From positions 186,001-250,000 of the forward strand of contig JANQPL010000009.1 in assembly GCA_028289425.1 (NCBI GenBank): 64,000 nt of DNA, in the 5' to 3' direction. The position numbers and the translations under genes are program-made. Below are positions 481 to 64,000 of this stretch, in pieces. Position 1 is the stretch's first letter, and every line of letters starts with the position of its first letter. Origin of the DNA: Alphaproteobacteria bacterium (lineage in GTDB: Bacteria; Pseudomonadota; Alphaproteobacteria; JANQMY01). The notes beneath the pieces were generated by a model, which saw only the letters and a program-made list of their open reading frames with translations, had not been told where the DNA came from and made no database searches.

Positions 481-582
481 AACCAAGTCGAACAATCAAA
501 TCTACAACATCGACCGACCTCGTTTGAGGTCCATTCCTGGTTGATTCACGCCGGAGGCATACCCCCCAGGTATAACCCAAAG

Positions 583-612
583 TTGAACCAGGTCTTAAAA
601 TCCGACTAATAT
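583..612 (+). promoter_or_regulatory. Predicted sigma70 promoter of the TIR-NACHT operon
   Basis: TTGAAC (583-588) and TAATAT (607-612) are separated by 18 bp, about 50 bp upstream of the TTG start at 665. This is the best promoter match between 480 and 665 and would drive the three-gene cassette. No operator palindrome was seen nearby. Confidence 0.45.
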
Positions 613-664
613 GTAAGGCATTTTGTGCGTAGGGTGAGAAATCAGAACTGGGGGTCGCGGGGCC

Positions 665-3600
665 TTGAGTGTTCGAGACCGGTACGACGGCTTTATAAGC
701 ATTCGGCAGGGGGCCGAACCCGTCTGCTATGAGTTAAAGACTTTGCTGGCGCAGCGGGATCTTTCTACCGCCTGGCAGGAGAACATAAATGAGTTCAGTT
801 CGCGCTCGCACATGGATGGTGTCCAGCAGATCATTCGCAACACCCATTTTTCGATTGTATTGATTACGCCAAATCTTTTCGATCCCCCATCTAACCAAAG
901 CCAGTGCCATCAGAAAGATGAACTGATTGCTATCAGTGAACGATTGTCTCGCGTTACCCATGAATCCGACGAAGCCGGTCGACTGAAATACAGTGTCTTC
1001 CTCGCCTTGTTACAGGATGAGCAGGGCTTTCCCCGTCACAGCGACTTGGTCACCAGCATCCAAGACGATAAGAAGATCAACTGGATAAGGGACGCTACGA
1101 ATTGGTGTGCCATTCCCAATTTTGAAGACGTTTCCGATCGTGAACGAAATGAGGCGATCGAGAAGCTCGTCGGCGATGTCTATCTTTGGGCAACCCGGCA
1201 AAGCGATATCGATTTTGGTTCTCGCGGAACGCGCTCAACTACAAACGGAACGTTGTCGTCCGCCAATGACGCAGACGCCGATAGCCAGCCAGAAATGCCG
1301 AATGGAACCGGGTCGCCGTCTGACGAACCGGACGAGCTTAGCGCGTTGGGCCAGCTGCAAAAATCCGAACGCGCTTATTTGGAGCGGGGGGCGCGGCTTT
1401 GGCATCGGGGACGCATCGACCGTGTCGAAGACGTTGCATTGGATGAAAGCCCTCTCGGTGCTGATGAATCTCCGTTTTCGTTCGACCCACAACGATTTAT
1501 CGAGCTGTTTGCACAGTCCGACCATTCGGCTGCCCCGACTCTCGCGACAAATGCAATGCCGGTTTCTGAGTTTTTCCTCCACGCGTGGGACCGACCGCTT
1601 ATCCTCCAGGGTGACGCCGGTGTCGGCAAGTCGACGACCGCCGCGGCGGTTGCTCTTGCGATGGCATCCACATGGGATGACGCATTCGCCGGATTTAGCG
1701 GCCGGCTTGCAAACGGCGCTTGGCTCAAAAATGCGGTCCCTCGGATTAATAGAGGTTCGCAGTGGTTTCCAGTCCTCACCCGTTGCAGTTGGGCGTCCAA
1801 ATTCTTTGTCGACGGCAGTCCCGATGTGGATCGTCTGCTTGATATTGTTACGATGGTCATCTTGGGAACGGACGAGATTCCCTCGCCGGATGCGCGTGAG
1901 GATTTGCGTGAACGCATGTCCAACCAACCGTACGCGCTTTTGTTCGATGGGTTGGACGAAGTTGAAGATTCTCGGCAAGGCATGGCGCTTGTCAATTCGG
2001 CGGTTGACCTATGGAATGAGATCAATCGGGGCGATCAAAAACTACGGGTGATGATTCTTACGCGAGAATTCAAACGAAACATCGCCGATGTCGACAAGGC
2101 CTCACTCAAACAACTTAGTTGGAACCAAATCTCAAACTTCCTGTCGTCCTACGCATTGTCGGCGGGCGAACAACAAAACGAAGCCATACAAGGACATATT
2201 TTTCGCGATGCGGAAGAGTTGTGGCGCGACGGGGGTGTCAACGCGGATCCGCTTAAAACGCCCTTGCTGTTAAACGCGTTCTGCTGGATGGAGATCAATA
2301 GAGGAAGTTTCAAAGGTAATCGCACCGAGTTCTGCCGCAACGTCATAGACTTTTTGGCAGCCAACCGAAAAATTGTCGCGCGGTCAGGCGAAGTTTTGAC
2401 CAGCGAGAAAGTACGCAAACTTCTTCAAAGATTGGCGTATGACGCAACCAGTTCGGATCTCGGTCGCGGCATTCTGACGGCGGACGATGCCGAGCAAGTG
2501 GTTGAAAGCTGGGGGCGGTCGGTGATCGACCACCATCTGTCGGGCGAGCAATGCCGGGCGATCCTGCAGCAAGTCAGCCATCAGACGGGCCTCTTCTATC
2601 GAATGAGGTCTAGTGACGGATCATCATATTACTCATTCGAGAAACGAGAATTGTTCCGTGAATACCTTGCGGGCGAGCGAATGGCGGAAGGCGGGCTCAC
2701 CCACCAAACAATTCGCCAACTTAGGGCGACGCCGGAAAAACTACAGCAATGGGAGCCTGCGATCGGCTTTGCCGCGGCGATGCGGTCGACGGACACCGAC
2801 GTCCACACGGCAATGAAATTGCCCAATTCCCTTCTGGATTCCGCACAAGCAAGCGATGCGTCGTCGGAAGCCTATTTGTGGTCGTCTGCCGCGCTGACCA
2901 CCCTTGTGGAAAGCGCGCGACGACTCGAGCTCCCCGACTTTAGTTCGTACATTGATAAAATACTGTTAGTGTACGGAAAGAACAAATCTCAATGGACCCC
3001 ATTGGAACGCAGTCGGTTTGCCGAACGGATGTTTTTATTGGCGCGCAAAACGAACGCGAAGATATCCACCAAAATCGCCAATCACCTGTTGGACAGATTC
3101 CTGGTCGGCTCGTCACAATGGCTGCCGCTGAAACAGAAGCCGAGCCTGTCGATTGCACGTACGCCGGTTTTGGTTTTTGAGTACCGGCAATTTCTGGAGG
3201 ACAACCCGTCCAGCAAGCAGTACTGGACCCATGCGCGTCTGCCGGAAGAGAAACACCTCATTACAGAAACACAAAGCCCCTCTGACAGCAGCCTGCCGGA
3301 GCCGGACGGCAGCGCGCGAGAGCATTGGACAAGCTCTGATCAATGGAACCGGCAGATGGATCACCCGGGCAATCCCATCGTTTTTGTTACCTGGTTTGAA
3401 GCGGTGGCCTACTGTGCTTGGAAAACCCACTCCATGAGAGAAAGCGGCGAACTTGATCCGGATGAAGTCGTGCGATTGCCGACGGCAGACGAATGGATGT
3501 CGGTTGTCGGCTTTGCATCAGACGGAGACCGATATCCGTGGGGCAACACGAGCCTGCGGGTGGGCACACCGTCTCAAGCCGTTGTGAATTCGTATCATTC

Positions 3601-3871
3601 CGGGATTAATGGATCGTCTGTACCCGGCGTGTTTGATCCCTACGGCTTGGACGGTTTGTATGACTTCGGTTCAAATGTACGCTGCTGGCTGGCAAACGAC
3701 ACCGCCCTGTCGGATCGGATTGACGAGGACGAGGATGTGCCCACGGCCGGCGGTTCGTGGGCAGACTTCGAAGTTTCTTTGTTTCGCTCGAATACGGAGC
3801 CGCGGCTGGAAGACCCGTTAGCGCGTCGCGTCTTTCTTGGCTTTAGGGTGGTGAGAGAGCGTCTGTCGTGA
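665..3871 (+). CDS. TIR-NACHT-FGE multidomain protein (NLR-like conflict/defence protein)
   Basis: 1068 residues, TTG start. Residues 1-175 resemble a TIR domain: a first strand DRYDGFISI, and an S-x-C-x4-E-L stretch (S79, C81, E86) matching the TIR NADase active site with E86 as candidate catalytic Glu. An acidic linker follows. Residues 310-560 form a NACHT-type STAND NTPase with Walker A GDAGVGKST (316-324), Walker B LLFDGLDEVED (425-435) and an ILTRE sensor strand near 464. After a helical middle part, residues about 827-1068 form an FGE-sulfatase/C-type-lectin-like domain (FVTWFEAVAYCAW, RLPTADEW, YPWGN, GGSW, GFRVV). The end of that domain lacks the paired cysteines of active formylglycine-generating enzymes, so it is probably a ligand-binding module. 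It is the first gene of a cassette whose partners start 45 bp after this stop. Inferred role: NTPase-gated immune effector, with TIR as the toxic domain and FGE as sensor. Domain calls are from motifs only; the TIR is divergent. Confidence 0.8.
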   Translation: MSVRDRYDGFISIRQGAEPVCYELKTLLAQRDLSTAWQENINEFSSRSHMDGVQQIIRNTHFSIVLITPNLFDPPSNQSQCHQKDELIAISERLSRVTHESDEAGRLKYSVFLALLQDEQGFPRHSDLVTSIQDDKKINWIRDATNWCAIPNFEDVSDRERNEAIEKLVGDVYLWATRQSDIDFGSRGTRSTTNGTLSSANDADADSQPEMPNGTGSPSDEPDELSALGQLQKSERAYLERGARLWHRGRIDRVEDVALDESPLGADESPFSFDPQRFIELFAQSDHSAAPTLATNAMPVSEFFLHAWDRPLILQGDAGVGKSTTAAAVALAMASTWDDAFAGFSGRLANGAWLKNAVPRINRGSQWFPVLTRCSWASKFFVDGSPDVDRLLDIVTMVILGTDEIPSPDAREDLRERMSNQPYALLFDGLDEVEDSRQGMALVNSAVDLWNEINRGDQKLRVMILTREFKRNIADVDKASLKQLSWNQISNFLSSYALSAGEQQNEAIQGHIFRDAEELWRDGGVNADPLKTPLLLNAFCWMEINRGSFKGNRTEFCRNVIDFLAANRKIVARSGEVLTSEKVRKLLQRLAYDATSSDLGRGILTADDAEQVVESWGRSVIDHHLSGEQCRAILQQVSHQTGLFYRMRSSDGSSYYSFEKRELFREYLAGERMAEGGLTHQTIRQLRATPEKLQQWEPAIGFAAAMRSTDTDVHTAMKLPNSLLDSAQASDASSEAYLWSSAALTTLVESARRLELPDFSSYIDKILLVYGKNKSQWTPLERSRFAERMFLLARKTNAKISTKIANHLLDRFLVGSSQWLPLKQKPSLSIARTPVLVFEYRQFLEDNPSSKQYWTHARLPEEKHLITETQSPSDSSLPEPDGSAREHWTSSDQWNRQMDHPGNPIVFVTWFEAVAYCAWKTHSMRESGELDPDEVVRLPTADEWMSVVGFASDGDRYPWGNTSLRVGTPSQAVVNSYHSGINGSSVPGVFDPYGLDGLYDFGSNVRCWLANDTALSDRIDEDEDVPTAGGSWADFEVSLFRSNTEPRLEDPLARRVFLGFRVVRERLS

Positions 3872-3916
3872 CGTCAAGCAACATAATCATCAATATGCAA
3901 AAAGTGGATTTGATCT

Positions 3917-5161
3917 ATGGCAACGGCCAACAACGGGGTTCAGTCGCGAACGCTCCAAGCGGTTTTAGAGCATGCAAAAGAACGTGTCAGTGTGCATTGG
4001 CGGGTTCTTGAAGACGAATTGGATGACGAAACGGACTGGGATCCGTATTTCGTCTCAGAACGTCAGCTAAATCGTCTTTCCAAAGAACTGCGGGAGCAAT
4101 TGTCGCTGTTGCAAGCCGTGGATTGGACCGGTTTTGAACATTGGACCGTGAAGAGAAAAAAAGAGGCCTTTGGGGAAATCCTCGAAGAAATGGCGAACAC
4201 GGGCACCGAGTTATACGGTGCTCTGATGACCGGCTTGCAGGGTGATCGGCAGTCCGAAGAGGATTCGAAGGTGTTTCGAGATTGGTTTGAGGAAACCGTC
4301 CTGCCGGCAGACGAAGGCAGCTGGCGTATTCAGATCATCCATACCAACTACTCAAAAGAAATCGTTCCATGGGGCCTGGTGTTCACGCCACGCTTGCCGG
4401 ATGACGACGATCGATCACCGACGTTTGAGAACTACAAGAACTTTTGGTGTTCGTGTTTCCGCCTTGCCTGCCGAGGCACGTTCTTGGAAGAAGCCGATGA
4501 GATCGAAGACAGGCGTGACGGCGACCTGACCAAAGTTGCCGTCGTCATCGAACGCGACGTGGATCAGTTCGATTCTTTCGAAAGGACACGCGCACGCAAG
4601 CCCGACCGCGATCGAGATCTCCGACGTGACTACATTGCCCATGACAAAAGAGAATTTCGCAGGTTGGCCTTCAATCAAAAGAAGAATGATGTCTTTTGGT
4701 ATATTTCGCTCAAATCGGACGGCGGGGCTTATTCGCTCGGGGGGCAGACTCTCGGCCATCAAGAAATCAGCAGTTCCTACGAACAGGTAAACGAAGATCG
4801 TATCATCATTATGCTGATTGATGGGGATGCCGTTATCCGCAATGACCGAGGGTCTCAATGGGTGGAATCGGCGCTAGAGATCGGACGGGCCGGGTTGATC
4901 GCCGTTGAAACCGACATTCAGAACCCGCAATTGCGATACTTCGGCTGGTTACTTTTGAAGTCTCTCATCAAGTCGCTATCGAAGAACCCGCTCATTGATG
5001 CGATGCAGGAAGCGCGCCGGGAGTTCTGGCCTCACAGTCTGCTCTATGGTGTTTATTGCAACCCACTGCATTTTTACCTTCACGACCGGCCTGACGACAT
5101 CATCGACTTCATTGACCGTTTTTTGGAGATCCCGTCCGTGCCTGCCGATGAATCCGACTAA
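3917..5161 (+). CDS. CHAT-like protein with degenerate catalytic site
   Basis: 414 residues. The first 130 residues are helical and charged with no recognised domain. From about residue 138 the layout matches the CHAT (caspase HetF-associated) fold: IIHTN then VPWGL (150-154, the family's PWEL signature), a strand at 258-264, a second strand at 295-301, WVESALEIGRAGLIAV (315-330), and the typical tail with an ALxxAR-like helix and a LLYGVYCNPL strand (376-385). The position that should carry the catalytic His-Gly reads FWYISLKSDGG, and the one that should carry NAC reads IMLIDGD, so the His-Cys dyad appears to be missing. It is probably a non-proteolytic scaffold or a binding partner of the two NTPases encoded on either side. 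The fold call is tentative; function is unknown. Confidence 0.55.
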   Translation: MATANNGVQSRTLQAVLEHAKERVSVHWRVLEDELDDETDWDPYFVSERQLNRLSKELREQLSLLQAVDWTGFEHWTVKRKKEAFGEILEEMANTGTELYGALMTGLQGDRQSEEDSKVFRDWFEETVLPADEGSWRIQIIHTNYSKEIVPWGLVFTPRLPDDDDRSPTFENYKNFWCSCFRLACRGTFLEEADEIEDRRDGDLTKVAVVIERDVDQFDSFERTRARKPDRDRDLRRDYIAHDKREFRRLAFNQKKNDVFWYISLKSDGGAYSLGGQTLGHQEISSSYEQVNEDRIIIMLIDGDAVIRNDRGSQWVESALEIGRAGLIAVETDIQNPQLRYFGWLLLKSLIKSLSKNPLIDAMQEARREFWPHSLLYGVYCNPLHFYLHDRPDDIIDFIDRFLEIPSVPADESD

Positions 5162-5210
5162 CACGAATTATTGGACCTAACCTAACAAATCGACCGGAAG
5201 TCTAATCACG

Positions 5211-8200
5211 ATGGCTGAGACCTCGTTACCCAAGAAGACCTCGCCGAAAAAGCGGCCAGCGTCGAAACGACCGAAACCGAAATCCAAAACCAAAGAAAGC
5301 CAAAGCAAGCCGACGCCCAGCGAGCCGGCACCGCATGCGGATCGAACTCCCGGTTATGAATCTTCTCCCTATCCGGGTCTGCAGTACTACCAAGAAGAAC
5401 AGGGCGATATTTTCGCCGGACGTGACATCGAGATTGCGAAATGTGCGCGCCTGCTTGTGAAATCGAGAGTTCTGGTTCTGCACGGCACGTCCGGGTGCGG
5501 AAAGTCGAGTTTTCTGCGGGCCGGTGTCAAACCGTACCTAGCCCGCGCCCGGCTTCCAATTTCGTTTGAGGAAAATCCGGATGGATTTCAGGTTATCCGC
5601 TCGACCGACAAACCCCTTCGGCAGTTCGCAACCCGCCTGTTGGAAGTCGTGGATGATTTGGCGGCGGGCAAGTCTTCCTATGGCCGGCTCAGGCGATCCG
5701 TCGACGCACACGAACTACAAGAAAAGTTCACCTCGGAAGAGCGACGGGAGCTCATCGGTACCGATTCTGATGCGGCATTCGAGGCCTTGGTAGATGTCGC
5801 CGGTGCCATGAGAACGGCGCCGGTTTTCGTGATTGATCAGGCCGAAGAAGTGTTCACATTGAGGGAACGTTTGGAGCACGACGACACATCGAACGCCGAG
5901 GAAAAGGACGCCGAACAAGAAATCGAAACCGCTGCATTCTTTAGGTTCCTAAACGAGGTCGCCCAAAGGGGGGCAAAGAGCCGAATTATTATCTCTCTGC
6001 GGACGGAGTATAAGGGGCGATTTGACGATCAGGTGTCGGCACATGGCCATCCCGGCGATGGCCTGCGCGGCTTTTACTTGAGTGAGTTGACCCATGAGGG
6101 ACTTAAGCACGCGATAACGCGCCCCACGCTGGAAGGTGCCGAGTGGGAAAAGGTGAAGAAGCGCAAACATGTTAAAGACAAGTCTTCCCCCTTCGAGCGC
6201 TTCCGATTTCGCATCGACGATGATGTGGTCGAACGCCTTGCTTCGGATCTCCTCAGCGAGCGGGTGCCCGCGGGCGGCATACTGCCTGCCCTGCAGATTG
6301 CCTGCCTGCAGCTATGGCGCCAATCGGAAGACGCCCGGTCCACCAAAGAGGAAAGCACCGGCAGGGCGCTGCGCATACGCATGCTGAACTATCGCCGGTT
6401 AGGAAAGATAGAAACGCAAGTCGAAGAGTATTTGGCCCAATCGCTTGAAGAGGTTGTTCTGCAGTCTTCTCGGTGGTCGCTTCGAATATCCGAAGTGGTC
6501 GAGAAATGGCACCAGGCATTTCGAAAAATTTTGGTCAGCGTTGAAGCCGACGGACGGGCAGTGACTCGGCGCCCACCGGAATCCGAATTGGTGAGCGAAC
6601 TTGTGGACTTTTTTGGTGCGAACAAGTCACTCGAAGCCGATATCCGGAAGATCATCGGCGAACTCAGCTCGAGCCGCTTCGGCATCCTTCGCAGAGAGCA
6701 AGACCGCATCACGTTGGGGCACGATAGCCTGGCGCTGGCCCTAAACAAATGGTGGATGGTCTTCAATCGCGAAGAGAACGCCATGATGCGTATGAGCATG
6801 GGATCCTACAAATCGCCGGATGAGATCGAAGCAACCGATCTATTTTTGAAAGGCGAGGAACCGCACGCATCAACGATTTACATGCCGGCAGAGCTGGGCT
6901 GGGACAGTCAGCTGCCTCATTTCGCGAGTATTCGCGGATTTGATAAGCGGCTCGGCATTACATTGCAGATCGGTGAAACAGACGATGCGTCAAACCTGAG
7001 CACCGTCTCGGGAGAGAACCGGCCAAAAGACTGGAACCAGTTGCGACGGCGCCTCTGGTCGCGGGAAAACGACCGCCGCGAGCAGGTCGACGCAACAAAA
7101 GACAAAGGCAAATCGCTTACAAATACCTACTTCTTGGCGCCGACCGAATGGGCGAGTTTCCCAGGCCGAGAAAGCAGCGGCGTGTCCAACAATGAACGCA
7201 CGCGCCATGCGCTCCGTTGGACCGATGTGCTCGTGACCGATCTGTTCGTTGGCAATGGACTTATTGGGTTGGAGCAAAAATGGTCGGAAGAAATGGTCAA
7301 AGTTCATGCGCTTCCGGCGAGCGACCAACCCGAACGCCTGCGCGAGGTCATTTCAGGGGCGCTCACCGAAATCTGTGAGAGGCGCGGCGAAGTAAAGTGC
7401 TTCAAGGACAGCGCGCGCAAATTCTTGCTTTTCGCGGCGGACATTTGCGAAGTCGCCCCAAAGGTCAAAAGGTACCTGTCGAGCGAAAAAAATGTATCGA
7501 TTGACGAAGGCACCTATTCCCAGCGGCGAAATCCGATGCTGACGTGGCTGTTGGAAAATGAGAACGCGGAAGAAGACGCCGCCTCCGTTCGTCCTCGCTA
7601 TATTGTATCGTCGTCATTGCCCCGAGCTTTGGCGGTGCAGTCAGGATATACGGTTTATTTTGGTGCGAACGATCTTGCGTCCCTTGCGCGGGATGAAATG
7701 TCGGGCCGGCAAGCCAATCAAAAAAAGCGTGTGACAGCCATTGATGATGTGGCAGATCGCATGCAGTCGGTTGTTCAGCACACGTTGTGGCAGGTAAGCG
7801 TGCCGTCCGCAAAGTGGAACAGCGGGTTGAACCGAGCTTTCATTTTGCGGCTCGCCGGTCTTGGATACTTTACGGCCGAATATGTGCGTTCAAACTCTGA
7901 TGAGTTTGTGCTGCACCTTCATGAATTCATGAACCGTGTCTTTGGGGAAGCCGGCGGTGGGCGCGATAGCGTCAAAGGTGTTCGGTTGAACCGGCAGATC
8001 ATTCGAGACACCTTCCAGAGCTGCTTCAACTTCCTGAAGTTCGAGGAATATGGCCATGAGATTTATGATCTCGACTCGCCGTTCGCCTATCGGACCGATC
8101 ATGCGTCGCTAGATACGCAAAGCATTGCCGACGAGATTTATATCGAACTTACGGATCTTCGGCGGAAAACATTGGCGCATTTTCATCGTGTGGCAGACAG

Positions 8201-8399
8201 CATTCGCTGGCTAAAGGATCGGGACGATTACGATCCATTGGAAAAAGCCGTACGGGATTTCTTCAAGCTTAAGCAGCTCGCCTGGAACAATTACAGGATT
8301 TTCAACTATTACGATTCCGAACGGTACATGGCACGCGCTGCCGCGGCTGCTCAAATTCTTATGGAGAAAAAAACCCACAATTCGGACGATACCGCCTAA
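5211..8399 (+). CDS. nSTAND-family NTPase with unassigned C-terminal region
   Basis: 1062 residues. Residues 1-45 are a disordered Lys/Pro/Ser-rich tail. Then PYPGLQYY and IFAGRD introduce an nSTAND1-type NTPase: Walker A GTSGCGKSS (92-100), Walker B VFVIDQAEEVF (about 203-213) and IIISLRTEYKGRFD (about 263-276), all in the usual order. Helical bundles follow to about residue 520, ending in LGHDSLALALNKWW, typical of the family's winged-helix end. The last 540 residues match nothing I recognise and have no evident TPR, WD40 or LRR repeats. It lies 49 bp after the CHAT-like gene, same strand, with a GGAAG ribosome site. STAND ATPases act as ligand-gated oligomerising switches, so this is probably a sensor or amplifier working with the TIR-NACHT protein. 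NTPase call firm; role inferred. Confidence 0.8.
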   Translation: MAETSLPKKTSPKKRPASKRPKPKSKTKESQSKPTPSEPAPHADRTPGYESSPYPGLQYYQEEQGDIFAGRDIEIAKCARLLVKSRVLVLHGTSGCGKSSFLRAGVKPYLARARLPISFEENPDGFQVIRSTDKPLRQFATRLLEVVDDLAAGKSSYGRLRRSVDAHELQEKFTSEERRELIGTDSDAAFEALVDVAGAMRTAPVFVIDQAEEVFTLRERLEHDDTSNAEEKDAEQEIETAAFFRFLNEVAQRGAKSRIIISLRTEYKGRFDDQVSAHGHPGDGLRGFYLSELTHEGLKHAITRPTLEGAEWEKVKKRKHVKDKSSPFERFRFRIDDDVVERLASDLLSERVPAGGILPALQIACLQLWRQSEDARSTKEESTGRALRIRMLNYRRLGKIETQVEEYLAQSLEEVVLQSSRWSLRISEVVEKWHQAFRKILVSVEADGRAVTRRPPESELVSELVDFFGANKSLEADIRKIIGELSSSRFGILRREQDRITLGHDSLALALNKWWMVFNREENAMMRMSMGSYKSPDEIEATDLFLKGEEPHASTIYMPAELGWDSQLPHFASIRGFDKRLGITLQIGETDDASNLSTVSGENRPKDWNQLRRRLWSRENDRREQVDATKDKGKSLTNTYFLAPTEWASFPGRESSGVSNNERTRHALRWTDVLVTDLFVGNGLIGLEQKWSEEMVKVHALPASDQPERLREVISGALTEICERRGEVKCFKDSARKFLLFAADICEVAPKVKRYLSSEKNVSIDEGTYSQRRNPMLTWLLENENAEEDAASVRPRYIVSSSLPRALAVQSGYTVYFGANDLASLARDEMSGRQANQKKRVTAIDDVADRMQSVVQHTLWQVSVPSAKWNSGLNRAFILRLAGLGYFTAEYVRSNSDEFVLHLHEFMNRVFGEAGGGRDSVKGVRLNRQIIRDTFQSCFNFLKFEEYGHEIYDLDSPFAYRTDHASLDTQSIADEIYIELTDLRRKTLAHFHRVADSIRWLKDRDDYDPLEKAVRDFFKLKQLAWNNYRIFNYYDSERYMARAAAAAQILMEKKTHNSDDTA

Positions 8400-8462: not shown

Positions 8463-8540
8463 CCGATTGGCGTACTCTTCCGAGCGCGGATTGGTCTCAA
8501 ACCAAAATAGAGAAGGTCTCTGAAATCGGTTGGTGTTGGA

Positions 8541-8617
8541 TGGTACCGCCTCCCCGGTTCGAACGGGGGACCTCTAGATCCACAATCTAGCGCTCTAACC
8601 AACTGAGCTAAGGCGGC
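8541..8617 (-). tRNA. tRNA-His (anticodon GTG), CCA encoded
   Basis: The minus strand folds into a full cloverleaf: acceptor stem GCCGCCT/AGGCGGT, D-arm, anticodon stem TAGA/TCTA with loop TTGTGGA (anticodon GTG), variable region GAGGT, and T-arm CCCCG-TTCGAAC-CGGGG, followed by A73 and an encoded CCA. G1 pairs with U72 and the discriminator is A73 rather than C73, the pattern known for alphaproteobacterial tRNA-His that does not rely on G-1. Its 3' end faces the accessory cassette, and a copy of that end occurs at 454-480. Confidence 0.97.
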
Positions 8618-8679
8618 CCATGTCAGGGTGCCCCACAAGGGCCTTTCGCGGCCGCCAAGGGGTCCGCGAGGGAGGGGAC

Positions 8680-8706
8680 ATTATGCCGTCATCGAAGCTA
8701 TTGCAA
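8680..8706 (-). promoter_or_regulatory. Predicted promoter of tRNA-His
   Basis: On the minus strand TTGCAA (8701-8706) and CATAAT (8680-8685) are separated by 15 bp, about 60 bp upstream of the tRNA 5' end. The spacing is short for sigma70, so this is a modest prediction. Confidence 0.3.
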
Positions 8707-8786
8707 GGGCGCTGCGGCCCTTGGACGGATGGTATTTCACCTCATATATGCGTATGTCTAGCGGACACAAGAAGTAAGGAAGCCGC

Positions 8787-9746
8787 ATGGATCTCATCGC
8801 CCGCGACCCGCGCATCAAGACCGAATTCGTCACTGCAAACGGCCTGTCCTTCGAGGTGGACATCTGCGGCGACGGCGAGAAATTCGCGCTGCTCTTGCAC
8901 GGATTTCCGGAAACGAATTTTTCCTGGCGTCACCAGATGCCGCTGCTGGCAGACATGGGATATCGTGTTTGGGCGCCAAACTTGCGCGGCTACGGCCGGT
9001 CGAGCAAGCCACGCGGCATCAGCGCCTACTCTCTTGATCATCTGATGGCCGATGTGCGGGGCTTGGTGGATGCGGCGGGGGCAAAATCCGTCACCCTGAT
9101 CGCTCATGATTGGGGCGCACTGATTGCCTGGAATTGCGCCATGGCCAAGATCAAGCCCATCGACAGGCTGGTCATTATGAACGTGCCGCACCCGGGGCCC
9201 TCCCGCAAAGCCATTCGCAAATGGTCTCAATTGCGTAAATCCTGGTACATCTTTGCCTTCCAACTGCCTTGGCTGCCGGAATACGCGCTGCGCCGCAAAG
9301 ACGCTCAGGCCATGGACTATGCGTTTGGCCATGAAGAGGTCGACAAATCGCGCTTCCCCAAAGAAGTGGTCGATGTCTACAAGCGCAATGTCCTCATTCC
9401 CGGCGCGGCAAACCGGATGGTCAACTATTACCGGGCGCTGCTGCGGCGCCCCGTCCAGCACCCCGCTCTGAAAGGCGGGCAACTGCCGCTTATCGAGGTG
9501 CCCACCCTGATGGTGTGGGGCGAGGCCGATATGGCCCTGTCGAAGTTTATGACATACGGCACGGACAAATACGTCCGTGATCTGACGATCCGCTACTTGC
9601 CGGGCGTGTCCCATTGGGTCCAACAGGAATCCCCGGAAATCGTCAATCCTCTGTTAGAAGATTTCCTGACCGGCCAACCGGTGCGCCAAGTGGAAGAGGT
9701 CAAGGCCGGCCTGTCACCTTCGCCAAGCGCCGCCGAAGCAGCCTAA
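8787..9746 (+). CDS. Alpha/beta hydrolase, epoxide hydrolase-like
   Basis: 319 residues. The oxyanion-hole motif HGFPE (38-42) and the nucleophile elbow AHDWGA with Asp108 are those of epoxide hydrolases and haloalkane dehalogenases, and YGRSSKP (69-75) follows the same family. Later come VWGEAD (acid region) and GVSHWVQQE with the catalytic His. Asp rather than Ser as nucleophile argues against an esterase. The protein should open epoxides or dehalogenate in the cytosol; the substrate cannot be read. AAGGAAG lies just upstream of the ATG. It sits alone between tRNA-His and a CtrA-marked histidine kinase, with no obvious operon partner. Confidence 0.8.
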   Translation: MDLIARDPRIKTEFVTANGLSFEVDICGDGEKFALLLHGFPETNFSWRHQMPLLADMGYRVWAPNLRGYGRSSKPRGISAYSLDHLMADVRGLVDAAGAKSVTLIAHDWGALIAWNCAMAKIKPIDRLVIMNVPHPGPSRKAIRKWSQLRKSWYIFAFQLPWLPEYALRRKDAQAMDYAFGHEEVDKSRFPKEVVDVYKRNVLIPGAANRMVNYYRALLRRPVQHPALKGGQLPLIEVPTLMVWGEADMALSKFMTYGTDKYVRDLTIRYLPGVSHWVQQESPEIVNPLLEDFLTGQPVRQVEEVKAGLSPSPSAAEAA

Positions 9747-9766
9747 AAAGTGCGGAACGGCGCCCA

Positions 9767-9820
9767 TTAACCATAATTGGTTCTTCCCTCACCGCACGGG
9801 AATCGTTAAACATTTCTTAA
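9767..9820 (+). promoter_or_regulatory. Predicted CtrA binding sites upstream of the histidine kinase
   Basis: TTAACCAT (9767-9774) is the alphaproteobacterial CtrA half-site. TTAA-N7-TTAA (9806-9820) is a perfect full CtrA consensus. Both lie in the 176-bp gap before the PAS histidine kinase gene at 9923, so the kinase is probably under cell-cycle control by CtrA. No footprint data; inferred from the consensus. Confidence 0.55.
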
Positions 9821-9922
9821 CGGCGGTTTTGGCGCAACCACCCGGGCGGCACCCCCCTCAACGTCCCGTCGCCAGAGCCGGTTTGTCGGGCATTTTGTGC
9901 GCTGGATGTTGAGTACACACTA

Positions 9923-11773
9923 GTGGGACGATCGGATAGATCTTTAATCGACGGGTTGGAACAGGACTCGCACCCCGCTTGGCTATGGGATGTGGGCCGG
10001 CAGCGCATGGCCTGGGCCAATGGCGCCGCCGTTTCGTTTTGGCGTGAATCGTCTCCCTTCGATTTGATCGATCGTATCTTTTCTCCGGCCGAAATCGGGG
10101 CCGTGGAATTCGGTCAAACATTCAACGCCCTTTCCGAAGGTCAGGAAGAACAGATTTCGCTGCTGCTCTTTCCGACCGCGGCCGGCGCCCAGGTGGATGC
10201 CGCCTGCCGGCGCCATCTGCTGCCGGACGGCCGCACCGGTTTGCTCATCCATTTGACGGCGGCCGCCACTGACGAGGACAGCCGGACGCTGGAACGCATT
10301 CGGGCAACGCTTGAGAATTTGCCCGGCATGGTCAGCGTGTTCGCCACCGACGGGAAAGTGCTGTTGGAAAGCGCGCTCGCCCGGGAAGCCTTCGGCCCCT
10401 ATACCAGCCTGCCCGATCGTCTGGGCAGCGGACGGGCGCGGGACCTTGTGGCGGACTTATTTGACCGCGGCATCGCCCACCAAACTTGCGACGTATTTAC
10501 AGATGTGGGTCAGCGCCGTCACCGCATTTCGGGAAAACGCATATTAGACCCGGCAACCGGCTTTGCCGCGGCGATTGCACTTTTCACCGACGTGACGGAC
10601 CGGCTGGCGTTGGAGGCGCGGCGCGACGCTGCCGACGATAGTGCGACGGGCGCGACGCTTCATGACGCGATTGAGGAGACCCTTGAACCGTTTCCAGTGG
10701 GCATCATTCTCCTGGATGAAAAAGGCCGGGTTGATTTCGCAAACGCGGCCGCCCATGGGCTCGCCGGTGCTGCGCGCGGCGATCTGGCAGGGGTTGATTT
10801 CATGGCGCTTGTGGCCCCTGAAAAACCCACTGTCGGCGATTTGCCGGTAGCCATGCCCACGCTTGCCGACCGCAGCCGCCAATTGCTCAAAGGCGAAGAC
10901 TTGGTATTGCAGCGGAAAGACGGCGAACGGCGTATGGCGCGCGTGACGCTGGCCCCGCTTCCCGCCAGGGCCGACCTGCCCCCGTTTCTCGCCGTGCTGC
11001 AAGACATTACCTCTCACCAAGACACCCTTGCTCTGCTTGTGAAAGAGCTCGAAAAAGCCAAACAAGAAAGCGCTCAGAAATCTCAGTTCCTGGCCAATGT
11101 AGGACATGAGCTGCGCACACCGCTCAATGCCATTATCGGCTTTTCGGAAATCATGCGCGATCAACGTCTTGGGCCGCTGAAAAACGACAAATACCGTCAG
11201 TATGCGAAGGACATCCACCATAGCGGACATCTGCTACTGAGTTTGATCAACGACCTGCTCGATTTGTCAAAGGTACAAGCCGGTAAGCTCAAGCTTCAAT
11301 TTGCGGAGATCAATTTGCGGACCGTGGTTGAGCAGTGCATCCGTCTTGTCCAACCGCAAGCGCAAAGAAAAAAGGTCAAACTGCGCCTTAACGTGCCGCC
11401 GGTCTTGCCGCTGGTAAAAGCGGACTCCCGTAGCCTGGAGCAAGTGGTCCTCAATCTTCTGACCAACGCGATCAAATTCACCAAAGCGTCGGGGGAGGTC
11501 AGCGTGTCCATTGCCACCGGCAAGGACGGCAATCTCGACTTGCGCGTGCAAGACACGGGCATCGGCATGAGCCCGGAAGAGCTGGACCGCGCCATGAAAC
11601 CTTTCGAACAGATCGATTCAACGGTTGCCCGAAAGGAGAAGGGAACCGGATTGGGACTGCCCCTTGCAAAAGCCCTGGCAGAGGCCAACCGCGCTCAATT
11701 CTCCATCCGCAGCGTACCCGATGAGGGGACTTCCGTGGCGTTGCGCTTTTCCGCAAGCCAAGCCGGCGGCTGA
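9923..11773 (+). CDS. PAS-domain sensor histidine kinase, PdhS/PleC-like
   Basis: 616 residues, GTG start. There is no membrane segment, so it is cytosolic. The N-terminal 60 residues (LEQDSHPAWLWD, MAWANGAA) resemble a degenerate PAS found at the start of alphaproteobacterial cell-cycle kinases. Two PAS-like domains follow near residues 115-230 and 250-370, then a short coiled coil, the HisKA block FLANVGHELRTPLNAIIGFSE with phospho-His near 395, and the HATPase domain with N box NLLTNAIKF, G1 DTGIGM and G2 GTGLGL. The sequence GPLKNDKYRQYAKDIHHSGHLLL is typical of the PdhS/PleC/DivJ group that feeds DivK and CtrA. The CtrA sites upstream agree with a cell-cycle role. No response regulator gene is adjacent. 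Confidence 0.82.
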   Translation: MGRSDRSLIDGLEQDSHPAWLWDVGRQRMAWANGAAVSFWRESSPFDLIDRIFSPAEIGAVEFGQTFNALSEGQEEQISLLLFPTAAGAQVDAACRRHLLPDGRTGLLIHLTAAATDEDSRTLERIRATLENLPGMVSVFATDGKVLLESALAREAFGPYTSLPDRLGSGRARDLVADLFDRGIAHQTCDVFTDVGQRRHRISGKRILDPATGFAAAIALFTDVTDRLALEARRDAADDSATGATLHDAIEETLEPFPVGIILLDEKGRVDFANAAAHGLAGAARGDLAGVDFMALVAPEKPTVGDLPVAMPTLADRSRQLLKGEDLVLQRKDGERRMARVTLAPLPARADLPPFLAVLQDITSHQDTLALLVKELEKAKQESAQKSQFLANVGHELRTPLNAIIGFSEIMRDQRLGPLKNDKYRQYAKDIHHSGHLLLSLINDLLDLSKVQAGKLKLQFAEINLRTVVEQCIRLVQPQAQRKKVKLRLNVPPVLPLVKADSRSLEQVVLNLLTNAIKFTKASGEVSVSIATGKDGNLDLRVQDTGIGMSPEELDRAMKPFEQIDSTVARKEKGTGLGLPLAKALAEANRAQFSIRSVPDEGTSVALRFSASQAGG

Positions 11774-11808
11774 CCGACCATACCGGCCGGTCGCGACGTT
11801 CGGTCTAT

Positions 11809-11836
11809 TTGACAATAATTCTCAATTGCATAATTT
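11809..11836 (+). promoter_or_regulatory. Iron-responsive promoter of the ferric-iron permease gene
   Basis: A perfect -35 TTGACA (11809-11814) is followed after 16 bp by TAATTT (11831-11836). Overlapping the -35, TGA-N9-TCA (11810-11824) matches the iron-Rhodo box bound by RirA, and the same stretch also resembles a Fur box (12 of 19 to the E. coli consensus). The downstream gene encodes an iron permease, which supports iron repression. Which regulator binds cannot be told from sequence. Confidence 0.5.
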
Positions 11837-11890
11837 ATCGCCTAAGGAATGGTACTGGAGGAAGGCCGACGGGCCCAAATGTGATGACCC

Positions 11891-13594
11891 ATGGCGATCG
11901 CTGATGCACGGCCGCAAGAAGCCCCTGCGCGCCCTTCTTTCGCGGGCCTTTTTGACCTTCAGGGCCAGACGATCCTGACGGCGGCTTTGTTGGTCGCTGC
12001 CTTCCTGTCGCTGCCAATTCTATCGGTCGTTTCCAACTTGCTTTGGGAGAGCGGGCCGGTCTGGCAGCATTTGATCGACACGGTCCTGGCAAACTACATT
12101 TCGAACTCAATCGTTTTGGCGGCCGCCGTGTGTGTCGGCGTCATGGTGCTGGGCGTCCCTGCCGCATGGATCACCACCATGTACCGCTTTCCGGGACGCA
12201 GCGTGTTTGAATGGGCGCTTATCTTGCCCTTGGCCTTTCCGGCTTATGTGGTCGCTTATACGTATACGGATTTTCTGCAATTTTCCGGTCCGGTGCAAAC
12301 CGCCCTGCGCGATACTATGGGCTGGACGGCGGCAGACTACTGGTTTCCGGAAATTCGATCGGTCGGTGGCGCTGCCCTCATCCTGTCACTCGTCCTCTAC
12401 CCTTATGTATACCTTCTTGCCCGCGCAAGCTTCTTGGAGCAATCCATGTGCGTGCTTGAGGTAAGCCGATCCCTTGGCCATGGGCCTGCCTCAACCTTCT
12501 TGCGGGTGGCCCTTCCATTGGCACGCCCGGCCATCGCGGCCGGTGTCGCCCTGGCGCTCATGGAGACACTTGCCGACTATGGAACGGTGTCATATTTCAG
12601 TGTACAGACGTTCACGACGGGCATTTACCGCACTTGGTTTTCATTGGGCGATCCCATTGCCGCATCCAAACTTGCCGCTTGTTTGCTGATCTTCGTGCTC
12701 ATCGTTCTTTCACTCGAGGCGCTTGGCCGGCGCCAGGCGCAATACCATCACACCAGCAAGAAGTATCGCCGGCTGGCAGGTTCACCGCTCAATCTTTGGC
12801 AGGGGCTTGGCGCGATCACCGTGTGCGCCCTGCCCGTCTTTTTCGGATTTATCTTGCCCTTCTTTATCCTGGTGGAGATGGGATTGAGGGACGGTTCGTG
12901 GGGTATTGACGAACAGTTTCTGGCGGTGGCCGCGAACACGCTCATTTTGGGGTTGCTCGCGGCTGTGATCGTGGTGAGCATCGCTGCCCTGCTGACATTT
13001 GGCCTCCGCCTTTATCCCCACCCCATCACGCGGTTTTCCCACCGGCTTGCGGGCATGGGCTATGCCATTCCCGGGTCCGTCATCGCCGTGGGCATATTGG
13101 TGCCCCTGGGGCTGTTCGACAATGCGGTGGACGAATGGTTCCGCGCCACCTTCGGGATCAGTACTGGGCTGTTGTTGACCGGCAGTATCGGCGCGCTTCT
13201 CTTTGCCTATGCGGTCCGGTTTGCCGCCGTTGCTCTGCAGACGACGAACTCCGCTTTCTCCAAAATCTCCGGGAACATAGATAGCGCGGCGCGGGTGCTG
13301 GGCGCCAAACCCGCCCGGCTGCTCTTCCGCGTACACATGCCGATCATGCGGGGGTCTTTGTTCACCGCTGCACTGATCGTCTTTGTGGAGGTGGTAAAGG
13401 AACTGCCGGCAACCGTCATCATGCGGCCGTTCAATTTCGATACGCTGGCGGTACGCGCCCACAATTTGGCGGCCGACGAGCGGCTCAGCGAAGCCGCCCT
13501 GCCCGCTATCGCCATCGTGGTTGTCGGGATACTCCCGGTCATTCTGATGGCCCGGGCCATATCACGGGCACGGCCCGGCACCATCGAAGAATAG
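11891..13594 (+). CDS. fbpB: Ferric iron ABC transporter, fused double permease (FbpB/SfuB type)
   Basis: 567 residues with about 12 membrane helices in two homologous halves, as usual for iron FbpB/SfuB permeases. Each half has an EAA-type loop: LARPAIAAGVALALMETLADYG (residues about 215-235) in the first and an equivalent loop with MRGSLFTAALIVFVEV and ELPAT in the second. It moves Fe3+ released by the periplasmic binding protein across the inner membrane. The binding protein gene follows convergently at 13617-14666. No ATPase (FbpC) gene lies in this window, so the ATPase must be supplied from elsewhere. The promoter carries an iron-box-like element. Confidence 0.88.
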   Translation: MAIADARPQEAPARPSFAGLFDLQGQTILTAALLVAAFLSLPILSVVSNLLWESGPVWQHLIDTVLANYISNSIVLAAAVCVGVMVLGVPAAWITTMYRFPGRSVFEWALILPLAFPAYVVAYTYTDFLQFSGPVQTALRDTMGWTAADYWFPEIRSVGGAALILSLVLYPYVYLLARASFLEQSMCVLEVSRSLGHGPASTFLRVALPLARPAIAAGVALALMETLADYGTVSYFSVQTFTTGIYRTWFSLGDPIAASKLAACLLIFVLIVLSLEALGRRQAQYHHTSKKYRRLAGSPLNLWQGLGAITVCALPVFFGFILPFFILVEMGLRDGSWGIDEQFLAVAANTLILGLLAAVIVVSIAALLTFGLRLYPHPITRFSHRLAGMGYAIPGSVIAVGILVPLGLFDNAVDEWFRATFGISTGLLLTGSIGALLFAYAVRFAAVALQTTNSAFSKISGNIDSAARVLGAKPARLLFRVHMPIMRGSLFTAALIVFVEVVKELPATVIMRPFNFDTLAVRAHNLAADERLSEAALPAIAIVVVGILPVILMARAISRARPGTIEE

Positions 13595-13616
13595 TCTGCT
13601 TACAAATCAAAACAGA

Positions 13617-14666
13617 TCAGGGCCAGCCGGCACGGTCGAACAGGATTTGCGCGAGCGGCTGGTTCTCGCCAAGCACACCAACGTTGATGGTATCGCTTTT
13701 GAAGTCACCCAAAGCGGTGAGTTCGTCGACGGGTGCAAGGTCGCTCACGACGGGGTATTCGAAATTCGCCCCCGCAAAAATGGCCTGAGCTTCAACGCTT
13801 GACAGATATTCAAGAAGTCGAACGGCGTTGTCCCGGTTCGGGGCATGGGCCGCCACGCCGCCGCCGCCAATATTCACGTGGGTCCCCGTGGTGTCTTGAT
13901 TGGGAAACAGCAGGCCCACCTTCGCAGCGGCGTCGATGTCGGCCGGCTGATCCGAATTCTGCATGCGCACATAATAATAATGGTTGCCGATCGCCACGTC
14001 GCACTCACCAGCGGCAACTGCCCGGATCTGATCTCGGTCGCCGCCCTGGGGGCGCCGCGCGAAATTCGCGACTACGCCTTTTGCCCACTCACCGGCGGCC
14101 TCTTCACCTTTATGGGCAATCAAAGAGGCAAGGAGCGACAGGTTGTAGATGTTGCTGCTGGAGCGGACGCAGACTTTGCCGTTCCACGCAGGGTCCGCCA
14201 CGTCGTCGTATGACGCCAATGTGGCAAGATCCACCCGCTCTTTGCTGTAGAAAATGACACGGGCGCGTGTCGAAAAGCCAAACCAGCGGCCGTCGGGATG
14301 GCGTAGATGTTCCGGAACCCGTTCGGTCAAGACATCGGATTGAACCGATTGAAGAACACCCGCTTCGTCGGCACGCCACAAATTGCCCGCATCCACCGTC
14401 AAGAAGATATCGGCCGGGCTATTGCGCCCTTCTATTTTGAGGCGTTCCAACAGCTCGCCGCCTTTGGCTTCGAGCACATTGACCCGAATCCCGGTTTTAG
14501 CTTCAAAGCCGGCATAAATCTCCCGGTCCGACGTGTAGTGGCGCGACGAATAGACATTCACCTCGCCATCGGCCAGCGACGGCCGCGTCTCGAAAGCAAT
14601 CAATACCCACACGGCGCACAAGGCGCCCAATAATCTCCACGCGATCGTCACGGTCAAAATCCCCAC
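13617..14666 (-). CDS. fbpA: Ferric iron ABC transporter, periplasmic binding protein
   Basis: 349 residues with an N-terminal signal peptide ending near LADGEVNVYSSRHY. The mature start VNVYSSRHY and the NHYYYVRM segment with clustered tyrosines are characteristic of FbpA/FutA-type Fe3+ binding proteins, where Tyr residues bind iron. It should deliver periplasmic iron to the permease encoded convergently. The GTG at 14666 has no ribosome site; an in-frame GTG at 14651 has GGGG at good spacing and still leaves a full signal peptide, so it is a plausible true start. A Fur-box-like element lies just upstream. Confidence 0.9.
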   Translation of the reverse strand: MGILTVTIAWRLLGALCAVWVLIAFETRPSLADGEVNVYSSRHYTSDREIYAGFEAKTGIRVNVLEAKGGELLERLKIEGRNSPADIFLTVDAGNLWRADEAGVLQSVQSDVLTERVPEHLRHPDGRWFGFSTRARVIFYSKERVDLATLASYDDVADPAWNGKVCVRSSSNIYNLSLLASLIAHKGEEAAGEWAKGVVANFARRPQGGDRDQIRAVAAGECDVAIGNHYYYVRMQNSDQPADIDAAAKVGLLFPNQDTTGTHVNIGGGGVAAHAPNRDNAVRLLEYLSSVEAQAIFAGANFEYPVVSDLAPVDELTALGDFKSDTINVGVLGENQPLAQILFDRAGWP

Positions 14667-14673
14667 AAACGTT

Positions 14674-14713
14674 GATATTGCGAATAACTATCAATTACAA
14701 ATCACGAGGTCAA
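14674..14713 (-). promoter_or_regulatory. Promoter with Fur-like box upstream of the iron-binding protein gene
   Basis: The 19-bp element at 14674-14692 matches the E. coli Fur consensus at 14 of 19 positions and has TGATA/TATCA ends one base further out. It overlaps a candidate -10 (GATAGT on the minus strand, 14687-14692) placed 15 bp from a TTGACC -35 (14708-14713). A repressor bound here would block RNA polymerase, as expected for an iron-repressed gene. Regulator identity (Fur, Irr or RirA) is open. Confidence 0.5.
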
Positions 14714-14816
14714 TGTGTATTGATTGGTTAATGCTTCGACATCATGCCGCATTTTCACTAGATTCTACGGCAATACTTCTGGGGATCGTCAGACACTCAT
14801 CTATTGCGGAGTAATC

Positions 14817-63377: not shown

Positions 63378-64000
63378 ATGAGCTGCCAGGTCTACATTAG
63401 CTACACGATTGATGACAAGGCGACGGCCGACGCAGTGTGTAATCTGGTCGAACGCCGCAAGATCCGCTGCTGGATTGCGCCTCGGGACATTCTCCCCGGC
63501 GAAAACTGGGCGGAAGCGATTCCGAAGGCCATTTCCGCCTGCGACGCACTGGTGGTCATCTTATCGGGAGAAGCGAACAAGTCCTCGCATGTATTGCGGG
63601 AAGTCGAACTCGCGGTCAGCGCCGGCAAATACGTCATTCCGATTCGTATCGAGGATGTCGAACCGTCGCAAGGAATCCAATACCTGATCCAGACCGCGCA
63701 TTGGCTCGACGCCCTCACACCCCCGTTGGAACGTCATATCGAACGCCTTGCCGACTCTCTTGAAGCGCTATTGTGTCGGGACGAAAAAACGTCTCCGCCA
63801 TCGGACGGTCAATCCCTCAAGGGCGATCGCCGCACGGGCGTTGGCGCCACGTCCGAACCTGTAACGGATCATCCACCCCACAGTGACCAACTTGATCGCC
63901 AAAAACTTGCTTTCAGCATATTCGCGGGTCTTGTGATGATCGGCCTCGTGGCATTTGCTGCAACGACGGTCTTCGATGTGTTTTTGCCCGGCGAGCGAAA
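63378..64000 (+). CDS. TIR-domain protein with transmembrane segment (3' end outside window)
   Basis: The first 207 residues are visible. Residues 1-130 are a clear TIR domain: VYISYTIDDKATADAV, the BB-loop-like CWIAPRDILPGENWAEAI, LVVILSGEANKSSHVLREVELA with candidate catalytic Glu75, and KYVIPIRIEDV. A charged linker follows, then one membrane segment at about residues 182-201 (FAGLVMIGLVAFAATTVF). Such TIR proteins usually have further sensor repeats after the membrane helix, so the extracytoplasmic part probably lies beyond the window. Bacterial TIR domains of this type cleave NAD or make cyclic ADP-ribose signals in defence. It may begin a second conflict locus. Confidence 0.87.
   Translation, partial: MSCQVYISYTIDDKATADAVCNLVERRKIRCWIAPRDILPGENWAEAIPKAISACDALVVILSGEANKSSHVLREVELAVSAGKYVIPIRIEDVEPSQGIQYLIQTAHWLDALTPPLERHIERLADSLEALLCRDEKTSPPSDGQSLKGDRRTGVGATSEPVTDHPPHSDQLDRQKLAFSIFAGLVMIGLVAFAATTVFDVFLPGER

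What the first reader, a model, noticed from the sequence alone, without database searches (positions are those of the whole stretch)
665..8399. Three-gene cassette with TIR-NACHT-FGE, CHAT-like and nSTAND proteins
Three large same-strand genes with 45- and 49-bp gaps combine two different STAND NTPases (NACHT and nSTAND), a TIR domain keeping a candidate catalytic Glu, a CHAT-like protein and an FGE-like domain. The parts are known from counter-phage and NLR-like conflict systems, but I know of no described system with this exact gene set. Inferred model: FGE and the nSTAND tail sense a trigger, the NTPases oligomerise, and TIR destroys NAD.
Basis: partly seen in the sequence, partly recalled or inferred. 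Interest (0 to 1): 0.85.

Follow-up and report, generated by a model that had tools for sequence, protein, structure and literature searches.

The report
Three-gene NLR-like bacterial conflict operon
A three-gene operon in an obscure lineage of alphaproteobacteria pairs two different ATP-driven immune-type switches with a binding domain and a possible NAD-destroying domain; it looks like a new arrangement of known bacterial self-defence parts, found so far in only two genomes.

Summary
Protein 1 has a solid FGE/C-type-lectin-fold C-terminus (Pfam E 8e-19) without the usual catalytic cysteines, and a divergent NACHT NTPase. Protein 3 has a solid nSTAND1 NTPase (E 1e-35) and a 550-residue tail without relatives. 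The TIR call is moderately supported (in-register profile match, empirical p about 1/300). The CHAT call is weak (p about 4/300); if right, P2 lacks the His-Cys dyad. AlphaFold failed for both, and catalytic activity is untested.

The trio occurs in only one other genome, a same-genus MAG, on two contigs that break inside the trio. It is under strong purifying selection (dN/dS 0.04-0.07) and less diverged at silent sites than its flanks, which suggests exchange as a unit. It was absent from 383 other alphaproteobacterial genomes, plasmids and viral contigs. No DGR template copy exists and the lectin tip is invariant.

Effector-STAND-FGS proteins (TIR with NACHT or nSTAND1) were described in 2021. 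What I found nowhere is one operon with two STAND classes plus a CHAT-like partner and the orphan tail. New variant of a known kind; anti-phage function is inferred.

The parts
581..664 (+). Leader conserved with the sister genome; nucleotide similarity begins here and not further upstream
   Evidence: blastn window 581-4626 vs L003 1228-5276, 80.6%; no consensus promoter found
665..3871 (+). Gene 1 (P1, 1068 aa): TIR-like - NACHT - helical - FGE/C-type-lectin-fold protein
   Evidence: ORF; sister orthologue 86% identical, dN/dS 0.074
680..1189 (+). TIR-like N-terminus, P1 residues ~6-175; only 7-73 aligned with confidence; candidate Glu86
   Evidence: profile match E 4e-4; 1/300 shuffles exceed; AlphaFold failed, pLDDT 32
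1592..2074 (+). NACHT NTPase core, P1 residues 310-470, Walker A 316-324, Walker B 427-432
3137..3856 (+). FGE-sulfatase / C-type-lectin-fold domain, P1 residues 825-1064, no Cys after GGSW 1029-1032
   Evidence: Pfam PF03781 E 8e-19; Cys positions
3917..5161 (+). Gene 2 (P2, 414 aa): orphan protein, possible CHAT fold without catalytic His/Cys
   Evidence: ORF; N-terminal 237 residues 90% identical in sister, dN/dS 0.042
4646..5065 (+). CHAT-like stretch of P2, residues 244-383
   Evidence: hhalign to cyanobacterial CHAT alignment, score 25.2, 4/300 shuffles exceed
5211..8399 (+). Gene 3 (P3, 1062 aa): Lys/Pro-rich N-terminus, nSTAND1 NTPase, orphan tail
   Evidence: ORF; sister 93% identical from residue 95 on, dN/dS 0.036
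5367..6737 (+). nSTAND1 NTPase, P3 residues 53-509, Walker A 92-100, Walker B 207-213
   Evidence: Pfam PF20703 E 1e-35; motifs
6738..8396 (+). P3 tail, residues 510-1062, candidate sensor or partner-binding region
   Evidence: no Pfam, plasmid or credible alphaproteobacterial relative apart from the sister
8541..8617 (-). tRNA-His(GTG) directly downstream; the DNA between it and gene 3 differs between the two genomes
   Evidence: ARAGORN; synteny comparison

Best explanation
The locus is a three-gene NLR-like conflict (most likely anti-phage, abortive-infection) operon. Shown: one strand, tight spacing, two intact STAND-type NTPase motif sets of different classes (NACHT in P1, nSTAND1 in P3), an FGE/C-type-lectin-fold C-terminus on P1, and co-conservation under purifying selection in two species. 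Inferred: the non-enzymatic FGE domain of P1 and/or the P3 tail bind a trigger; ATP-dependent oligomerisation of P1, probably gated or templated by P3, clusters the N-terminal TIR-like domains; these consume NAD+ and stop the cell. P2 is most likely an inactive CHAT-like adaptor or regulator between the two NTPases rather than a protease.
For: Pfam FGE and nSTAND1; Walker A/B of both NTPases; TIR profile support; the trio present in the sister with dN/dS 0.04-0.07; accessory behaviour: less silent divergence than flanking core genes (third-position identity 0.59-0.61 versus 0.44-0.48), lower GC, next to tRNA-His. Precedent: TIR/caspase/trypsin-STAND(NACHT or nSTAND1)-FGS proteins predicted as counter-invader systems (PMC8195603; PMC10907252); a TIR-like NADase (DUF4062) shown to defend against phage (PMC13174449); DUF4062-nSTAND1-FGE proteins occur in tandem on a Chloroflexota plasmid.
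Against: No PADLOC model matches any of the three. Not in an evident defence island: the neighbours looked at are malic enzyme, hydrolase, histidine kinase and ABC transporter genes. TIR catalytic residues not placed unambiguously. P2 fold unproven. Only two genomes, so co-occurrence statistics are thin. No functional data.
Confidence: 0.5

Rival explanations
1. Proteolytic variant: P2 is an active peptidase or other hydrolase (CHAT-like or unrelated) and is the main effector; the TIR-like region of P1 is only a homotypic adaptor, as in caspase-recruiting NLRs.
For: CHAT and caspase-like proteins are common effectors beside STAND NTPases (PMC8195603); P2 is a separate conserved gene; weak CHAT similarity.
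Against: The stretches that would carry the CHAT His and Cys read VFWYISLKSDG and IIIMLIDGDAV, without either residue.
Confidence: 0.15
2. Co-opted NLR-like machinery with a housekeeping or developmental role, for example control of lysis or release of a domesticated prophage, rather than phage defence.
For: In Caulobacter, another alphaproteobacterium, the tripartite CARD-NLR-like LypABC controls lysis for gene transfer agents (PMC13236601). The trio is conserved in both genomes held for its order and is under purifying selection.
Against: Silent-site divergence lower than in flanking core genes, and altered flanks, suggest accessory exchange. LypABC has trypsin, ATPase and TPR domains, not TIR, FGE or nSTAND1.
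Confidence: 0.2
3. The three genes are independent neighbours without joint function.
For: No shared domain or detectable adaptor similarity between the three proteins.
Against: 45- and 49-bp gaps (43 bp between genes 1 and 2 in the sister), and all three genes present in a second species despite changed flanks, with the contigs broken just between genes 2 and 3.
Confidence: 0.08
4. P1 is a target of a diversity-generating retroelement, giving a hypervariable antigen sensor.
For: FGE/CLec domains on STAND NTPases are frequent DGR targets (PMC10907252).
Against: No second copy of the 222-bp 3' end in the genome; the only RVT_1 match is a DRT2-type RT on another contig; residues 1027-1063 of the FGE domain are identical between species despite silent divergence.
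Confidence: 0.02

Closest known systems
Effector-STAND NTPase-FGS counter-invader proteins (Kaur et al., eLife 2021, PMC8195603)
   Same: P1 matches the described architecture: N-terminal TIR or other effector, NACHT or nSTAND1 NTPase, C-terminal FGS; association with further effector genes
   Different: No duplicated effector-associated domain linking the genes was found; no DGR; a second STAND class sits in a separate gene with an orphan tail instead of an FGS; a CHAT-like third gene
DGR-diversified STAND-CLec antigen sensors (PMC10907252)
   Same: NACHT or nSTAND1 fused to a C-terminal CLec/FGE domain; some have N-terminal TIR; CHAT occurs in related loci
   Different: No template repeat or DGR RT; lectin tip invariant between species
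bNACHT anti-phage proteins (PMC12169576)
   Same: Effector-NACHT-sensor tripartite plan as in P1
   Different: The bNACHT proteins of that paper carry nuclease or no visible effectors and are studied as single genes; here the partners are a second STAND protein and P2
Swarozyc / DUF4062 TIR-like NADases (PMC13174449)
   Same: Expected mechanism: TIR-like NADase activated by assembly; DUF4062-nSTAND1-FGE fusions exist
   Different: P1 N-terminus does not match DUF4062 in Pfam; no evidence of portal sensing
LypABC CARD-NLR-like system of Caulobacter (PMC13236601)
   Same: Three-gene NLR-like locus in an alphaproteobacterium, ATPase-driven
   Different: Trypsin/CARD/TPR/nuclease domains instead of TIR/FGE/nSTAND1/CHAT-like

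Membership tests
Effector-STAND-FGS conflict protein | C-terminal FGS/FGE domain (PF03781) | tested here: met
   E 8e-19, above cut-off
Effector-STAND-FGS conflict protein | Central STAND NTPase (NACHT, nSTAND1 or MNS) | tested here: met
   NACHT below Pfam cut-off but Walker A, Walker B and homologous alignment present
Effector-STAND-FGS conflict protein | N-terminal effector or EAD domain | tested here: inconclusive
   TIR-like by profile, no Pfam hit over cut-off, AlphaFold failed
Effector-STAND-FGS conflict protein | Multiple copies of an EAD shared between neighbouring genes (typical, not universal) | tested here: not met
   No convincing similarity between the three proteins by blastp; a very divergent shared domain could be missed
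DGR target | Template repeat and DGR reverse transcriptase in the genome, variable tip | tested here: not met
   invariant tip between species
TIR NADase | TIR fold | tested here: inconclusive
   residues 7-73 in register with TIR profiles; no usable model
TIR NADase | Catalytic Glu at the conserved position | tested here: inconclusive
   E86 is a candidate, but an insertion after residue ~73 blurs the alignment
TIR NADase | NAD+ cleavage | not testable with these tools
   needs a biochemical assay
CHAT peptidase | CHAT fold/profile | tested here: inconclusive
   no Pfam hit, none with alphaproteobacterial TPR-type CHAT profile, weak with cyanobacterial CHAT
CHAT peptidase | Catalytic His and Cys | tested here: not met
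   absent from the two stretches that correspond in the weak alignment
nSTAND1 NTPase | PF20703 over cut-off with Walker A and B | tested here: met
   124.5 bits versus 27.1 cut-off; motifs
Formylglycine-generating enzyme | Active-site cysteine pair after the GGS motif | tested here: not met
   only Cys 917 and 1007 in the domain, none after GGSW 1029-1032; the position rule is from general knowledge of SUMF1
Known anti-phage systems in PADLOC | Match to a PADLOC protein model | tested here: not met
   only weak generic ATPase matches, E 0.009 or worse

The most novel reading that the evidence does not exclude
A genuinely distinct defence class in which two different STAND NTPases, one carrying a TIR effector and a fixed lectin-like receptor and the other a new sensor domain, form a mixed assembly through an inactive CHAT-like bridge: a bacterial counterpart of paired sensor/helper NLRs.
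Probability: 0.2. Interest if true: 0.8.

Novelty: new variant of a known kind. Interest (0 to 1): 0.5.

Why it matters
The tested bacterial NLR-like proteins that I know of mostly work as a single STAND protein or with one partner. An operon that keeps two STAND NTPases of different classes under selection would offer a bacterial test case for paired or helper NLR logic, and its three regions without relatives (TIR-like N-terminus, P2, P3 tail) are candidates for new or very divergent domains.

Tried and rejected
AlphaFold of the TIR region and of P2 with two-sequence alignments failed (pLDDT 32 and 33), so no fold search was run. Direct homologue searches for P2, the TIR region, the P3 tail and the P1 NACHT region in 385-399 genomes of the class or phylum gave only the sister or spurious or borderline hits (the hit in G323 is in a ribonuclease J-like gene). 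Searches for each whole protein in viral contigs and plasmids found no orthologue. A CHAT profile from alphaproteobacterial TPR-CHAT proteins gave nothing for P2; only the cyanobacterial CHAT set gave a weak signal. The P3 tail matches neither TIR nor CHAT profiles. DGR diversification rejected. Insertion of the trio at unrelated sites in the two genomes was considered first because the immediate flanks differ, then corrected: P3 lies on the same side of the same tRNA-His block in the sister, with about 8.7 kb of extra DNA between.
Full report
Observation. The ORFs are at 665-3871, 3917-5161 and 5211-8399, all on the plus strand, with gaps of 45 and 49 bp. They are real genes. A same-genus MAG (L003, JANQMY010000610.1, handle G001) carries gene 1 and the first 237 codons of gene 2 on one contig, and gene 3 from its Walker A motif onward at the end of another contig. 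Both contigs end inside the missing interval, so the simplest reading is the same order with roughly 0.9 kb lost between contigs. Protein identities over the compared parts are 86, 90 and 93% and dN/dS is 0.074, 0.042 and 0.036. The TTG start of gene 1 is shared.

Domains. P1 residues 825-1064 are FGE-sulfatase (E 8e-19) and P3 residues 53-509 are nSTAND1 (E 1e-35), both far over the Pfam cut-offs. The P1 NACHT match is below cut-off (E 2.6e-4), but Walker A GDAGVGKST, Walker B FDGLDE and LTREF are present, and residues 316-718 align to annotated NACHT NTPases. The FGE domain has no cysteine after GGSW, so it should be a ligand-binding lectin-type fold rather than an enzyme (inference from knowledge of SUMF1).

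TIR. Pfam gives only a sub-threshold CAP12/Pycsar TIR match, E 0.19. A profile I built from 29 alphaproteobacterial TIR_2 domains scores P1 at 8.3 bits, E 4e-4, in full-sensitivity mode. The profile-profile match covers residues 7-73 in register from the first strand, and beats 299 of 300 column shuffles and all 33 unrelated window ORFs. Beyond residue 75 P1 carries an insertion, and the catalytic glutamate column cannot be placed uniquely, so E86 remains a candidate. AlphaFold with two sequences gave pLDDT 32, which is uninformative.

CHAT. P2 has no Pfam or PDB relative, and only chance-level plasmid matches. Against a cyanobacterial CHAT alignment P2 residues 244-383 align with score 25.2, exceeded by 4 of 300 shuffles; other CHAT profiles give nothing significant. 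By eye, IVPWGL, the hydrophobic strands, EARREF and the final CNP follow the CHAT pattern, but the strands that should end in His and Cys do not carry them. I treat P2 as possibly CHAT-like and probably not a peptidase.

Distribution. Only 2 of 385 alphaproteobacterial genomes (itself and the sister) have P2, and the same two genomes are the only credible ones for the P3 tail and the P1 NACHT region. A scan of one genome per species for P2, viral contigs and plasmids gave no orthologue outside the genus. These direct searches would miss very distant relatives. The order is represented by two genomes in the held set.

Genomic setting. Nucleotide similarity to the sister starts 84 bp before gene 1 and ends at the end of gene 3. 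Downstream, tRNA-His and 8 kb of core genes are collinear in the sister, but about 8.7 kb with efflux, TetR and P450 genes separates them from gene 3 there. Third-position identity is 0.59-0.61 for the trio and 0.44-0.48 for four flanking core genes, with dS about 1.1-1.3 versus 1.7-2.1. The trio has therefore probably been exchanged between the lineages after the core split, or is unusually slow at silent sites. GC is about 53-56% across the trio and 57-59% just downstream. The near neighbours are metabolic and regulatory, and no known defence gene adjoins the trio.

DGR test. FGE/CLec domains on STAND NTPases are often DGR targets. Here the 3' 222 bp has no second copy in the genome, the only RVT_1 match is a DRT2-type RT on another contig, and residues 1027-1063 are identical between species. 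A fixed receptor is implied.

Known ground. Kaur et al. 2021 (PMC8195603, section 7) describe STAND-FGS proteins with N-terminal EADs or effectors including TIR, caspase and trypsin, and with NACHT or nSTAND1 as the NTPase, and propose that the FGS domain senses invaders. P1 therefore belongs to a described architectural class. In the plasmid records I checked, related proteins are NACHT-FGE triplets in Herpetosiphon and DUF4062-nSTAND1-FGE pairs in Chlorohelix. I found no paper or record with two STAND classes in separate genes plus a CHAT-like third gene, but most subscription papers are not in the library.

Verdict. An NLR-like conflict operon, a new variant of a known kind. Mechanism (inferred): ligand binding, ATP-driven assembly of P1 with P3, TIR clustering and NAD loss, with P2 as adaptor. 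Confidence about 0.5 for the whole chain and about 0.75 that it is a conflict system of some sort.

Noticed in passing
L007 784-2337 (G000:C4:119366-120919): A DRT2-type defence reverse transcriptase (PADLOC Drt2, E 2e-129) elsewhere in the same genome.
   Followed up: partly
window 63390-64000, + strand, runs off the end: A canonical TIR_2 gene (Pfam E 4.5e-22), unlike the divergent TIR-like region of P1; a further cluster of TIR genes lies at G000:C15 59-61 kb.
   Followed up: partly
L068 973-2013 (G000:C4:7184-8224): A small protein with a canonical CHAT domain that keeps HFSGHG and NSC motifs (E 7e-14), beside an IS-type transposase.
   Followed up: no
window 8540-16698 versus L082 112-8337: Collinear core block next to tRNA-His; the sister has about 8.7 kb of extra DNA (HlyD, RND efflux, TetR, P450 genes) between it and P3. 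The P450/TetR block sits roughly 86 kb away in the window's genome.
   Followed up: partly
L083 13321-15021 (G000:C19:183321-185021): Trypsin_2 protease gene just beyond the malic enzyme gene upstream of the trio; weak PADLOC RT-Protease match, probably generic.
   Followed up: no
L078 3210-9196 (Candidatus Chlorohelix plasmid): Two tandem DUF4062-nSTAND1-FGE proteins: a TIR-like NADase, STAND and lectin-fold fusion on a plasmid.
   Followed up: no
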